Origin: Fimbriimonadaceae bacterium
GTDB lineage: Bacteria; Armatimonadota; Fimbriimonadia; Fimbriimonadales; Fimbriimonadaceae
DNA length: 64,000 nt
Assembly: GCA_023957775.1 (NCBI GenBank)
Contig: JAMLGR010000002.1
Location: 186,001-250,000 of the forward strand
Reading direction: 5' to 3'
Shown here: in pieces, positions 2,794 through 11,131 of the stretch
Numbering within the stretch: the stretch's first letter is position 1
Layout: each line of letters opens with the position of its first letter
The notes under the pieces: model-generated
Told to the model about the DNA's origin: nothing
Seen by the model: the letters and a program-made list of their open reading frames with translations, nothing else
Database searches by the model: none
Made by a program: the position numbers and the translations under genes

Positions 2794-3762
2794 TCAACCC
2801 ATCGGGTGCCGGTTGAACGCCGAGTAACGGCCCGTCACGTGGTGTTCGAGCTGGCGCTCGATATCGGCGAGCAGAGTACTGGCTCCAAGTCGAAACAAGG
2901 CGGGATGGGTCCAGGGGTCCCCGAGCTCTTCCTTCATCAGGATCAGCCAGTCGAGGGCTTGTTTGGCGGCACGGATGCCGCCCGCTGGTTTGAAGCCGAC
3001 CGAAAAGCCCGTCCGTTCTCGATACTCGCGAATCATGCGCGCCATCACCAACCCGAACTGCGGCGTGGCGTTTACGCCCTCCTTCCCCGTGGAGGTCTTG
3101 ATGAAATCCGCCCCGGCCATCATGCAGACGACGCTCGCCTTCCCGACATTGCGCAACGTGCCGAGCTCCCCCGTGGCGAGGATGGTCTTGAGATGCGCAT
3201 CGCCGCAGGCCTCTCGAAACGCGCTCACCTCGTCGAACAGGCCCTGCCAATCGTGGTTCAGCACATGCGCGCGCGTGATCACGATGTCGATCTCCTCCGC
3301 GCCCGCCTGCACGCTCGCCTCAATCTCGCGAGTGCGTTCGGGAAGAGGACTCAGCCCGTGCGGGAACCCCGCGGCGACCGCCGCGACGGGGACTCCCGAT
3401 CCCTCAAGCGCCTCCGCAGCCACCTCGACGAACCGGTGGTACACGCACACGGCCCCGACGCGGACGCCCAGATCGGCAACGCCCAACGCCTCCGCCAGGT
3501 CGGGCCTCAGGGGTTGCACCGCCTTGGCGCACAGCCGCCTCACCGTCCCCGGGGTGTCGTCCCCGGACAGCGTGGTGAGGTCCATGCACGCGATGGCGCG
3601 CAACAGCCATCCGGCCTGCCACTGCTTCTTCACCGTTCGCCTCCCGGGCAACGAGGCGGCCCGGCGGTCGACCGCGCTGCGGTTGACGCGGATCGAGTCG
3701 ATCCAATCGAGGTCGAGGGCCGTGCCCGAGTTGCGGCCGAGGTTGGGTGTGAGGATAGACAT
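2794..3762 (-). CDS. deoC: Deoxyribose-phosphate aldolase
   Basis: Class I aldolase that splits 2-deoxyribose-5-phosphate into glyceraldehyde-3-phosphate and acetaldehyde (cytoplasmic, deoxynucleoside catabolism). The Schiff-base lysine is in DFIKTSTGKEG and the second active-site lysine in VGFKPAGGIR. At about 322 residues from MSILTPNL it is the longer, eukaryote-like form of DeoC with an N-terminal helical extension, rather than the 220-260 residue form. An upstream ATG at 3783 adds seven residues (MGHSALP) and is possible but less likely. It sits ahead of the ALDH16 gene in a likely two-gene operon. The partner phosphorylase deoA is 30 kb away in this window. Confidence 0.93.
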   Translation of the reverse strand: MSILTPNLGRNSGTALDLDWIDSIRVNRSAVDRRAASLPGRRTVKKQWQAGWLLRAIACMDLTTLSGDDTPGTVRRLCAKAVQPLRPDLAEALGVADLGVRVGAVCVYHRFVEVAAEALEGSGVPVAAVAAGFPHGLSPLPERTREIEASVQAGAEEIDIVITRAHVLNHDWQGLFDEVSAFREACGDAHLKTILATGELGTLRNVGKASVVCMMAGADFIKTSTGKEGVNATPQFGLVMARMIREYRERTGFSVGFKPAGGIRAAKQALDWLILMKEELGDPWTHPALFRLGASTLLADIERQLEHHVTGRYSAFNRHPMG

Positions 3763-4306
3763 GGGAAGCGCTGAGTGTCCCATTCAACCCGATTGGGAAC
3801 ACTTTGCTCATCTGGTTCGTCTAGCTTTTCCTGTGCTCGCGTCGGCTTCGGTCGGCGCGGTGCCGGTCCGGGGCATGGCCCGGGAAATGGATCAACCGTG
3901 GCAACACGGCCAAAGGATCGGGTGCCCATCCCGGTCGCCTTGACGCAAGTCGGGGACCTCCATGCAAGCTGAGGCTTCGCAGACCTCGTTCCTGGAACGG
4001 GGTTGAACCGGAAGGCCGAGGCCGAGGACCGACGGCGAGTGCTGAGGTCCGCGTCGGGGTAGCCCTCGACAACGGCTTCTGCTAAAGGCTGAGGGGTGAG
4101 AGCCGAAGAGTAGGGGACGCAGTTCGACCGGTCCGTCGGAAGAGCCGCGCTCCAGCCTCGCGGGTTGCGGGTTTGCCACAAGCAGGCACGCCGTCCGGGA
4201 AGGCCGTCTGGTACCCGCGGAACGGGGAAGGACAGAATGGCGTGGCGCATTGGGTGTCTAACAAGACACGCAACGCCGGACCGTACACGTCGTTCGGGCG
4301 AACAAA

Positions 4307-4377
4307 GGCGATTGTCCGAGGTCGGACAATGGACTGCAACTCCGTTGATGGGGGTTCAAATCCCCAGATCGCAGCCA
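4307..4377 (+). tRNA. tRNA-Cys(GCA)-like element, atypical and possibly non-functional
   Basis: The 71 bases read as a tRNA-Cys. The anticodon loop is CTGCAAC with anticodon GCA at 4336-4338 on a 5-6 bp stem, the variable loop is short, the T loop is the canonical TTCAAAT, and CCA is encoded at 4375-4377. Several features are wrong for a working tRNA-Cys. The D arm has only a 4-6 base loop. The first acceptor pair is G:A and a T-stem pair is G:A. The discriminator base is G, whereas cysteinyl-tRNA synthetase normally needs U73. It may be a pseudo-tRNA or a tRNA-like domain inside the larger RNA. Confidence 0.4.
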
Positions 4378-4678
4378 TAGCGAAAGATACGGTCCGTGCA
4401 GGATGGAAAGCAGCCTGTTTCCCCTGGCTTCGGCTAGAGGGGAGCGTGGAGGATCTCGCAAGATCCTCGACGTACTGTCGTGAACGAACGGTTGGTCCTT
4501 AGCGGGATCTTAGCGGGGTGGCAAGCCTCGACCGACTGAAGCGGCATAACACGCCTGCACGAGAAGGGAGCCGAACCTTCGAAAAAAGACGGCGGCTGAG
4601 GCGCTTGCCCAGCTACGGGGAGACCCGGGCTCGGCGGACACAGCGGCGAAACGATAATGCCGCCAAAGAGCGACCACG

Positions 4679-4712
4679 CCCCGACCCAAGTCTACGGTCG
4701 GGGTTTTCTTGT
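4679..4712 (+). terminator. Intrinsic terminator of the structured-RNA block
   Basis: A perfect 8 bp stem CCCCGACC/GGTCGGGG with a 9-base loop is followed by TTTTCTTG. It lies upstream of the SulP start at 4741, so it ends whatever is transcribed from the 3.9-4.7 kb block. It also argues against the longer SulP start at 4657. Confidence 0.85.
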
Positions 4713-4740
4713 TTGTCGGTGGTACTCTGCATCTTCCCCG

Positions 4741-6453
4741 ATGGCGAGCGCCCCGACCACCACACCGCGCTCTGAATGGACGCCCAAACTCGTTCATTGC
4801 CTGCGGGGCTACACGGCTCACTCGTTCCTTGTTGATGCCATCGCGGGGGTCACGGTGGGGCTCGTGGCCCTGCCCTTGGCGATGGCGTTTGCGATCAGCT
4901 CGGGCGTAAGCCCTCAGGCGGGAATCTACACGGCGGTCGTTGCCGGCTTTTTCGCCTCGGCGCTTGGAGGCTCCCGACTTCAAATCACAGGACCGACGGG
5001 GGCGTTCGTCGTGGTCGTGGCCGGCATTGTGGCCAAATACGGTCTGGGCGGGCTCGCCCTTTGCACGATCCTGGCAGGTCTGATCTTGCTCGTCCTGGGC
5101 CTCACCGGGCTGGGAACGGCCGTCAAGTACATTCCCCGCCCCGTCGTCGTCGGGTTCACCAACGGGATCGCGGTGCTGATCGCCAGCACGCAGATCAAGG
5201 ACTTCTTCGGCCTGACGATGACCAAGACGCCGAGCCTTTTTCTCGATCGGCTCGTCGCCATCGGCGCCCACTGGTCCACCCTGTCGCCGGCGGCCACCGC
5301 TGTGGCCGCCGGATCCCTCACGGTGCTCATCGTCTTCCGCCGCTTTCTTCCCCGAATCCCCGGAGCGATCGTTGCGCTCGTCGTCGGCACCCTTGTGGCG
5401 TGGGGCTTGCGTCTGCCCGTGGAAACCATCACGTCCCGTTTCGGCGGCATCCCCGTGGGTCTTCCCCCCCTTCAGGTGCCCGAGATACACCTTCACCAGT
5501 TCGCCAGCCTCATCTCGCCGGCGCTCACCGTGGCGATGCTCGGGGCGATCGAGTCCCTGATGTCGGCCGTGGTCGCTGATCGCATGAGCGGCGATCGCCA
5601 CAATCCCAACGTCGAATTGGCCGCCCAAGGGGTGGCAAATCTGGTCTCACCGCTGTTCGGCGGAATCCCCGCGACCGGGGCCATCGCCCGGACCGCCACG
5701 AACATCCGATCGGGCGCGAAGACCCCGGTCTCGGGCCTGATCCATGCGGCCACGCTCGGGGCGATCCTCCTGTTCGCCGCTCCTGTCGCCGGCGTGATTC
5801 CCCTCGCGATCCTCGCGGCGATCCTGATGATGGTGGCCTACAACATGGGCGAGTGGCGCGAGATCCCCAGCATTCTCAAGCTCTCGAAGGCCGACGTGGC
5901 GGTGTGGTTCGTCACGTTCATGCTCACCGTGTTCGCCGATCTGACCGTGGCCGTAGAAGCGGGCATGATCCTCGCGGCGCTCCTGTACATTGCCCGCGTG
6001 ACCAACACGACGACCGTCGTGCCCGTCACGGAGGACTACGTCGCGGAGGGTGAGGAGCACAGCCTGCAAGGAAAAGAGATTCCCGACGGGGTCGCCATCT
6101 ACCGGATCCACGGCCCGTTCCTGTTCGGCGCCACGGACAAGCTCGCAATCGTCACGGACTCCATCGAGGCGCTTCCACCCGTCGTGATCCTGCGTCTGCG
6201 CAACATGACCGCGATCGATGCGACGGGCATTCAGGCGCTCGAGGATCTCGCGGAAACGATGGAACTGCACGGGCGCCACTTGCTCCTTTGCGGCATGCGC
6301 CCACAGCCCGCCCGCCTGATCGAGCGGGCGCACTTCCAAAGGCACCTGGACCCTCGGAACCTGTGCCCGCACGTGGACGCGGCGCTGAAGCGGGCGGCGG
6401 AGATCCTCGCAGACCCGGGCGACGGAGAGCACGAGGCCCTCCAGCCCCGATGA
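4741..6453 (+). CDS. SulP-family anion transporter with C-terminal STAS domain
   Basis: A 570-residue inner-membrane protein. About residues 35-430 form the hydrophobic SulP (SLC26-type) transporter with many membrane segments, including an early GVTVGLVALPLAMAFAISSG helix and PATGAIARTATN, both typical of the family. The last ~110 residues are a STAS domain (LRLRNMTAIDATGIQALEDL). The family carries sulfate, bicarbonate or other anions; the substrate cannot be assigned here. The start at 4741 was chosen because the alternative at 4657 would place coding sequence inside an intrinsic terminator. No carbonic anhydrase or sulfur gene is adjacent. Confidence 0.9.
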   Translation: MASAPTTTPRSEWTPKLVHCLRGYTAHSFLVDAIAGVTVGLVALPLAMAFAISSGVSPQAGIYTAVVAGFFASALGGSRLQITGPTGAFVVVVAGIVAKYGLGGLALCTILAGLILLVLGLTGLGTAVKYIPRPVVVGFTNGIAVLIASTQIKDFFGLTMTKTPSLFLDRLVAIGAHWSTLSPAATAVAAGSLTVLIVFRRFLPRIPGAIVALVVGTLVAWGLRLPVETITSRFGGIPVGLPPLQVPEIHLHQFASLISPALTVAMLGAIESLMSAVVADRMSGDRHNPNVELAAQGVANLVSPLFGGIPATGAIARTATNIRSGAKTPVSGLIHAATLGAILLFAAPVAGVIPLAILAAILMMVAYNMGEWREIPSILKLSKADVAVWFVTFMLTVFADLTVAVEAGMILAALLYIARVTNTTTVVPVTEDYVAEGEEHSLQGKEIPDGVAIYRIHGPFLFGATDKLAIVTDSIEALPPVVILRLRNMTAIDATGIQALEDLAETMELHGRHLLLCGMRPQPARLIERAHFQRHLDPRNLCPHVDAALKRAAEILADPGDGEHEALQPR

Positions 6454-10689: not shown

Positions 10690-11131
10690 CCAACTCCAAG
10701 ACCGCCGAAGGCGCACCGTCTCCGCGCCGTGTGCCGATCTTGGTGAGCCGGGTGTAACCCCCGTTCCGCTCCTTGTAGCGCGGCGCGATGTCGTCGAAGA
10801 GACGCTTGACAAGGTCCTCGCCGTTGATGAGGCTGCGCTCCTGCAGGATCTGGGACTTCTCCATCGCGGTCTTCCCGGCGAGCAGCTTTTCGGGCTTGGC
10901 GCTCGAGGCCGAGTGGCCGACCAGAACCCGGCGCGCGCGCTGCCGCGCCGCGAGGGTGTCCTTCTTGCCCAGCGTGATCATCTTCTCGACGAGCCGTTGC
11001 AGCTCCTTCGCGCGCCCCTGCGTCGTGCGGACGTAGCCGTGCCGGATGAACTGGCGCGTGAGGTTCGTCAGCAGCGCTCGGCGCTGGTCGCTGGGCAGGC
11101 CCAGCTTACGTCGGTCAACAAGGTGTCTCAT
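10682..11131 (-). CDS. rplQ: 50S ribosomal protein L17
   Basis: L17 near the peptide exit tunnel, recognised by the start MRHLVDRRKLGLPSDQRRAL and by TTQGRAKELQRLVEKMITLGKK. At 149 residues it carries an insertion/extension of about 25-30 residues relative to the 120-residue forms, mostly in the region around HSASSAKPEKLLAGK. Its start overlaps the rpoA stop (ATGA-type junction), a sign of translational coupling. Confidence 0.96.
   Translation of the reverse strand: MRHLVDRRKLGLPSDQRRALLTNLTRQFIRHGYVRTTQGRAKELQRLVEKMITLGKKDTLAARQRARRVLVGHSASSAKPEKLLAGKTAMEKSQILQERSLINGEDLVKRLFDDIAPRYKERNGGYTRLTKIGTRRGDGAPSAVLELVD

What the first reader, a model, noticed from the sequence alone, without database searches (positions are those of the whole stretch)
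3890..4712. Unassigned ~0.8 kb block of dense RNA structure with its own terminator
The largest gene-free stretch of the window is full of exact hairpins with stable tetraloops (GCAA, TTCG, AACA, CGCA) and ends in a strong intrinsic terminator. I looked for the conserved cores of RNase P RNA, tmRNA, SRP RNA and rRNA on both strands and found none. Size, hairpin density and an embedded tRNA-like element recall in general terms the large ornate RNAs such as GOLLD and ROOL, but I cannot show homology. This is my best candidate for something undescribed.
Basis: partly seen in the sequence, partly recalled or inferred. Interest (0 to 1): 0.8.

Follow-up and report, generated by a model that had tools for sequence, protein, structure and literature searches.

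The report
Stress-promoter GOLLD RNA with tRNA-like insert
The 'undescribed' RNA is a divergent member of GOLLD, a known class of giant bacterial RNAs that build hollow RNA cages, but here it sits as a stand-alone gene in an ordinary chromosome, has a likely stress-type promoter of its own and carries a degenerate tRNA-shaped arm predicted to lie inside the cage.

Summary
In detail: window ~3829-4712 encodes a ~0.88 kb, strongly structured RNA. It is not undescribed. A permissive Rfam search gives a full-length match to GOLLD (RF02032) at 4235-4693, E 4.5e-25, 94 bits. Rfam's automatic cut-off is 150 bits, so a routine scan misses it. Eight genomes, all in one Armatimonadota family (Fimbriimonadaceae), carry one copy each. 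Seven align over the whole RNA, and 112 of 242 consensus pairs show compensatory changes. The 5' half is GOLLD's 5' (cap) domain. The 'terminator' hairpin is also a conserved structural hairpin. The tRNA-Cys call is a degenerate tRNA-like arm in GOLLD's linker, which published cryo-EM places inside the 14-mer cage. Homologues have such an arm with unrelated anticodons. What may be new: these GOLLDs lie among ordinary chromosomal genes with no clear phage genes found nearby; five of eight share GAACA-N16-CGTC, an ECF-sigma-type promoter, upstream (best in 400 shuffles was 3); and one relative has the same deoC/SulP junction without the RNA. Likely role: a stress-induced RNA nanocage enclosing tRNA mimics. 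Membership is near certain, assembly probable, purpose inferred.

The parts
3796..3821 (+). ECF-sigma-type promoter GGAACA-N16-CGTC; transcript start expected near 3828-3830 (inferred)
   Evidence: Blind word search: GAACA-N16-CGTC shared by 5 of 8 upstream regions, shuffles reach 3 at most in 400; exact GGAAC-N17-CGTC in own, G075, G129, G121, RX3
3868..4234 (+). 5' domain of the GOLLD RNA (by position the cap domain of the cage)
   Evidence: Aligned in 7 of 8 loci; 108 consensus pairs, 95% of cells paired, 51 pairs with two-sided changes; RNAalifold z -14.8
4235..4693 (+). 3' domain of GOLLD, full-length match to RF02032 (contains the linker)
   Evidence: cmscan 94.3 bits, E 4.5e-25, model 1-416/416
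4307..4377 (+). tRNA-like arm (anticodon-like GCA) in the GOLLD linker; acceptor-like pairs 4308-4313 with 4367-4372; D-loop shrunk to 4 nt
   Evidence: ARAGORN and Rfam tRNA 33.6 bits, lowest of the genome's tRNA hits above the cut-off, next lowest 50.1; a normal tRNA-Cys lies on contig 3; counterparts in homologues
4396..4560 (+). Long-range helix closing the middle of the 3' domain (GTGCAGG 4396-4402 with CCTGCAC 4554-4560)
   Evidence: Covarying in 7 sequences (columns 550-560 with 712-721)
4499..4504 (+). Loop TTAGCG at the position of L21a; self-complementary GC at 4502-4503, candidate self-kissing contact between half-shells
   Evidence: GC in 5, AU in 2 homologues, same register; matches the published B8 pattern
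4678..4704 (+). 3' end hairpin with conserved AAGTCTA loop; followed here by a T-rich run (4705-4714), so also the likely terminator
   Evidence: 8 consensus pairs, 7 with two-sided changes; fold -17.5 kcal/mol
2794..3783 (-). flanking gene, DeoC/LacD-family aldolase (divergent; start may be at 3761)
   Evidence: Pfam DeoC E 4e-22
4742..6453 (+). flanking gene, SulP sulfate permease with STAS domain
   Evidence: Pfam Sulfate_transp E 1.6e-89 and STAS

Best explanation
The block is a stand-alone GOLLD RNA gene. Shown here: a ~840-nt conserved RNA with a 5' domain, a variable linker carrying a tRNA-like fold, and the Rfam-modelled 3' domain, under covariation selection in one family of Armatimonadota. 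Strongly suggested by conservation: transcription from an ECF-sigma-type promoter at 3796-3821. Inferred from the solved GOLLD structure (PMC12286853): the transcript self-assembles into a closed RNA-only nanocage (14-mer there), with 5' domains forming the caps, 3' domains the wall, self-complementary loops joining the two half-shells, and the linker, hence the tRNA-like arm of every subunit, facing the lumen. Most likely role (inferred, perhaps 1 in 4): a stress-induced compartment that presents many copies of a tRNA mimic to tRNA-binding proteins, sequestering them, and not a source of decoding tRNA. Confidence by step: GOLLD identity about 0.97, cage assembly about 0.75, tRNA-like arm in the lumen about 0.7, ECF-type control about 0.75, decoy/sequestration role about 0.25.
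For: Full-length RF02032 match, E 4.5e-25, single copy in the genome; 8 of 291 genomes of the phylum, all in the same family, E 9e-21 to 3e-32. Whole-RNA alignment at 75% mean column identity; consensus fold z -26 against column shuffles; 95.2% of cells paired and 112 two-sided pairs versus 50 +/- 5 in shuffles and 18-25 when partners are slid. Linker tRNA-like fold in homologues with different anticodon loops. Self-complementary L21a dinucleotide in all seven, GC or AU, the kind of pattern published as evidence for the intermolecular bridge B8. Promoter word in 5 of 8 loci against at most 3 in 400 shuffles. Published: GOLLD is a 14-mer cage, its linker is inside, and tRNAs are sometimes in it.
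Against: The score is below Rfam's gathering cut-off (94 against 150) in all eight genomes. No transcript data. The promoter word is not clearly enriched genome-wide (73 sites against 54 in the reversed control) and is absent or imperfect in G145, G125 and G106. Cage assembly is carried over from one distant GOLLD; the L20 x J13/15 kissing contact (B7) could not be identified. No experiment links the tRNA-like arm to any protein. The 5' domain could not be compared with that of the solved GOLLD.
Confidence: 0.85

Rival explanations
1. A prophage or phage-remnant GOLLD: the RNA is a leftover of a phage (as in L. brevis and mycobacteria) that has lost its other genes and is now decaying.
For: GOLLD is typically phage-, prophage- or tRNA-array-linked (PMC12286853, PMC6582537). 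Patchy distribution, 8 genomes in 8 genera, and different neighbours at each locus suggest lateral arrival.
Against: No phage structural or replication genes found in the flanks tested, except a collagen-repeat protein with tail-fibre-like matches near the G106 copy. Covariation is strong and the fold intact in all aligned copies. GOLLD is 95% identical between G129 and RX3 while aligned flanking DNA is 81-91%. A promoter word is shared between non-syntenic loci.
Confidence: 0.2
2. A real tRNA-Cys gene in a structured intergenic region: the tRNA is the functional product and the rest is leader and trailer.
For: ARAGORN and Rfam call a tRNA here, ARAGORN as tRNA-Cys.
Against: The genome has a normal tRNA-Cys elsewhere. 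This one is the lowest-scoring tRNA above the cut-off (33.6 against 50.1 or more) and has a 4-nt D-loop. Homologues at the same position read CAT, AAT, GAT, TGG or have 8-nt anticodon loops; G129 and RX3 orthologues keep paired stems but differ in the anticodon loop. The flanking 840 nt covary as one RNA.
Confidence: 0.03
3. A wholly new RNA class unrelated to GOLLD.
For: No Rfam hit to a large ornate RNA at the gathering cut-off; the 5' half has no Rfam match.
Against: Full-length GOLLD alignment with E 4.5e-25 and the same result in seven further genomes; GOLLD's 5' half is outside the Rfam model and is known to vary.
Confidence: 0.01
4. Compatible with the best explanation: a mobile RNA cassette in which promoter, RNA and terminator move between chromosomal sites, by an unknown route, as a selfish or domesticated element without proteins of its own.
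For: The deoC/SulP divergent pair exists without the RNA in G076, with roughly 60 bp between the genes instead of ~980 bp; neighbours differ at every locus except G129/RX3; each copy brings the whole RNA and, in most, the same promoter word.
Against: Loss in G076 would look the same; insertion edges and target duplications could not be mapped because the short intergenic DNA does not align; no second empty site was found in the sister species tried.
Confidence: 0.35

Closest known systems
GOLLD RNA, Rfam RF02032 (env-38 cryo-EM 14-mer; L. brevis prophage; mycobacterial tRNA arrays)
   Same: Full 3' domain, ~0.85 kb size, separate more variable 5' domain, variable linker that can hold a tRNA, self-complementary L21a dinucleotide.
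   Different: Subfamily scores 79-118 bits, all under the 150-bit cut-off; lies among ordinary chromosomal genes, with no clear phage genes or tRNA array at the loci examined; ECF-sigma-type promoter; a tRNA-like arm in all nine copies compared, often degenerate.
ROOL RNA
   Same: Large ornate RNA, cage-forming, disordered linker inside, often near tRNAs.
   Different: No Rfam ROOL match here; published as unrelated to GOLLD in sequence and secondary structure.
tmRNA and other tRNA-like RNAs
   Same: Carry a partial tRNA fold in a larger RNA.
   Different: No Rfam tmRNA match in this block; here the tRNA-like arm is internal, has an anticodon-like loop and varies without regard to decoding.

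Membership tests
GOLLD | Conserved 3' domain (all 416 positions of RF02032) at the E < 1e-5 criterion used in PMC12286853 | tested here: met
   E 4.5e-25, positions 1-416, 94.3 bits. Below Rfam's 150-bit automatic cut-off, as are all seven homologues
GOLLD | Overall architecture: ~800 nt, separate 5' domain, linker, 3' domain | tested here: met
   3868-4704 with domains in that order, covarying
GOLLD | Variable linker between the first 3'-domain hairpin and the rest, sometimes holding a tRNA | tested here: met
   tRNA-like arm at 4307-4377 in the model's unpaired linker; counterparts in homologues
GOLLD | Self-complementary central dinucleotide in L21a (intermolecular bridge B8) | tested here: met
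   GC in five, AU in two sequences; loop assigned to L21a by position, not by a solved structure
GOLLD | Kissing contact L20 x J13/15 (B7) | tested here: inconclusive
   L20-like CGCAA loop is invariant, so it cannot covary; partner not identified
GOLLD | Assembly into a closed 14-mer RNA cage | not testable with these tools
   Needs mass photometry or cryo-EM
GOLLD | Usual, not defining, setting: phage, prophage or tRNA array | tested here: not met
   Metabolic and transport neighbours, no clear phage structural genes in the flanks scanned, no other tRNA nearby except one 2 kb away in G121
ROOL | Match to the Rfam model | tested here: not met
   No hit at E <= 5 on 3700-4900
functional tRNA-Cys | Normal D-arm with the G18-G19 region and a score like other tRNAs of the genome | tested here: not met
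   4-nt D-loop; 33.6 bits against 50.1 or more for the genome's other tRNAs above the cut-off

The most novel reading that the evidence does not exclude
A domesticated GOLLD: in Fimbriimonadaceae a chromosomal, ECF-sigma-controlled RNA nanocage encloses many copies of a tRNA mimic and serves the cell (for example by trapping tRNA-targeting enzymes under stress), with the RNA spreading between chromosomal sites as a protein-free cassette.
Probability: 0.25. Interest if true: 0.85.

Novelty: new variant of a known kind. Interest (0 to 1): 0.5.

Why it matters
GOLLD cages have atomic structures but no known function. A group of GOLLDs apparently separate from phages, with a recognisable promoter type, a tRNA-like insert in every copy compared and an empty-site relative, gives three direct handles on function: which stress turns it on, what binds the tRNA-like arm, and what changes in cells that lack it. 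It also shows that automatic Rfam cut-offs and tRNA finders mis-annotate this group (missed GOLLD, false tRNA-Cys).

Tried and rejected
Rfam at the gathering cut-off showed only the tRNA; the GOLLD match appeared only in evalue mode. Relatives in phages (blastn), plasmids and viral contigs (patterns): none; the two viral contigs hit were chance. A regulon of the promoter word in the own genome: no clear enrichment; no paper was read to fix the promoter consensus (search only). Second empty sites in sister species: the accessory neighbours have no usable orthologues. Greedy longest-ORF gene calling failed in this high-GC DNA and was replaced by codon-usage scoring. The first alignment used unoriented loci and was redone. 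The 2009 GOLLD paper and the 2020 mycobacterial GOLLD paper are not held; no held paper mentions both GOLLD and Armatimonadota.

Full report
What is there. The window position 3868-4704 (+) encodes a conserved structured RNA. The + strand folds far better than shuffled sequence (z -4.4) and the - strand does not (z -1.4). An ordinary Rfam scan at curated cut-offs reports only a tRNA at 4308-4373, which is why the block looks unassigned. With the cut-off relaxed, GOLLD (RF02032) matches 4235-4693 over all 416 model positions, 94.3 bits, E 4.5e-25.

Homologues. The genome has one copy. Of 291 genomes of the phylum, eight (including this one) have a match, all in the same family and in eight genera, with E-values from 9e-21 to 3e-32 and all below the 150-bit cut-off; the family has 85 genomes in the set. 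Record titles for several name Fimbriimonadaceae or Fimbriimonadia. A ninth, RX3, is cut by a contig end. No relatives were found in phage, plasmid or viral-contig collections with the searches used.

One RNA, two domains. Seven sequences align from CTGGGGCATGGCCCAG to the AAGTCTA hairpin with 75% mean column identity. The consensus has 242 pairs, 112 of them with compensatory changes; 95.2% of cells pair, against 83% when 3' letters are shuffled and 38-46% when partners are slid; two-sided pairs are 112 against 50 +/- 5 and 18-25. Consensus energy is 26 standard deviations below column shuffles, and the 5' and 3' domains each pass on their own (z about -15). G106 keeps the 3' domain but has a different 5' domain, in line with the published modularity of GOLLD.

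The 'terminator'. The last hairpin (4678-4704) has 8 consensus pairs, 7 with two-sided changes, and a conserved AAGTCTA loop. In several homologues no T-run follows it and a separate terminator-like hairpin lies further on (sequences). It is therefore a structural hairpin of the RNA (by position probably P27 of the solved structure) that is followed by a T-run here.

The 'tRNA-Cys'. The tRNA-like arm lies in the part of the GOLLD model that is an unpaired linker. The cryo-EM paper places this linker inside the cage and notes that phage-encoded tRNAs are sometimes in it; a pseudo-tRNA inside a mycobacterial GOLLD is also on record, with no expression of that tRNA detected. In this group every copy compared has such an arm, but it does not behave like a decoding tRNA. 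Anticodon positions read GCA, CAT, AAT, GAT, TGG, TTG and others, two copies (G145, RX3) have 8-nt anticodon loops, one copy (G125) has a GCAA hairpin in place of the T-arm, and the own copy has a 4-nt D-loop. tRNA scores run from 62.6 bits down to 33.6 (own), with two copies (G106, G125) not detected. The orthologues G129 and RX3 keep paired anticodon stems through compensatory changes while the loop differs. The genome's normal tRNA-Cys is elsewhere. The fold, not the anticodon, is what is kept.

Cage contacts. The hairpin at 4490-4509 corresponds by position to P21a. Its loop carries a self-complementary dinucleotide in all seven sequences, GC in five and AU in two, in the same register. 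A palindromic switch (GC to CG) at L21a is the published covariation evidence for the symmetric intermolecular contact B8. The neighbouring hairpin has GC in six and CG in one by my reading of the alignment. This supports, but does not show, that these RNAs also assemble.

Promoter. A search that was not told what to look for, for any 5-mer/4-mer word pair 14-20 nt apart in the eight upstream regions, returned GAACA-N16-CGTC in five of eight; 400 dinucleotide shuffles gave 2 (398 times) or 3 (twice). With its preceding G this resembles an ECF-sigma promoter (-35 GGAAC, -10 CGTC; consensus from general knowledge, not from a paper read here). The sequence between the two boxes differs from locus to locus, so this is not simply shared ancestry of the flank. 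The word is not clearly enriched genome-wide, and G145, G125 and G106 lack an exact copy.

Genomic setting. Flanking genes at the loci are metabolic, transport or hydrolase genes: DeoC and SulP here; Na/H exchanger, S9 peptidase, family-4 glycosidase, AI-2E-type transporter and others elsewhere. PHROGs gave no phage structural genes in the proteins scanned except a collagen-repeat protein at the G106 locus. Gene order is shared only between G129 and RX3. In G076 deoC and SulP are divergent neighbours as here, but with roughly 60 bp between them instead of ~980 bp: an empty site. Whether the RNA was gained here or lost there cannot be decided, and the edges do not align.

Conclusion. It is a GOLLD RNA, of a divergent subgroup apparently free of phage context. 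Steps shown: family, domains, covariation, tRNA-like insert, conserved upstream word, empty-site relative. Steps inferred: transcription, ECF control, cage assembly, arm in the lumen, and the proposed role as a stress-induced cage of tRNA mimics. Whether any of these sequences are already among the ~800 GOLLDs collected in PMC12286853 was not checked.

Noticed in passing
G129 contig 13 (L043, L052): The record carrying this locus is titled 'Methanoregulaceae archaeon' (JADZEW010000013), yet the genome groups with this Armatimonadota family and its locus matches RX3: probably a mislabelled or mixed bin.
   Followed up: no
L051 (RX3), L041 (G075): Contigs end inside (RX3) or just after (G075) the GOLLD RNA; might reflect assembly trouble at the structured RNA or extra copies.
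   Followed up: no
L044:8674-8748 and 10784-10860: In G121 the embedded tRNA-like arm and a normal tRNA-Ile gene 2 kb away both read GAT, but their sequences are not close (aligned).
   Followed up: partly
L039:8420-9330 (G106): G106 keeps the GOLLD 3' domain (best score, 118 bits) but has an unrelated-looking 5' domain: a natural swap of the cap domain within one bacterial family.
   Followed up: partly
window 4307-4377: Standard tRNA annotation will list a second tRNA-Cys here; it should be treated as a tRNA-like arm of GOLLD.
   Followed up: yes
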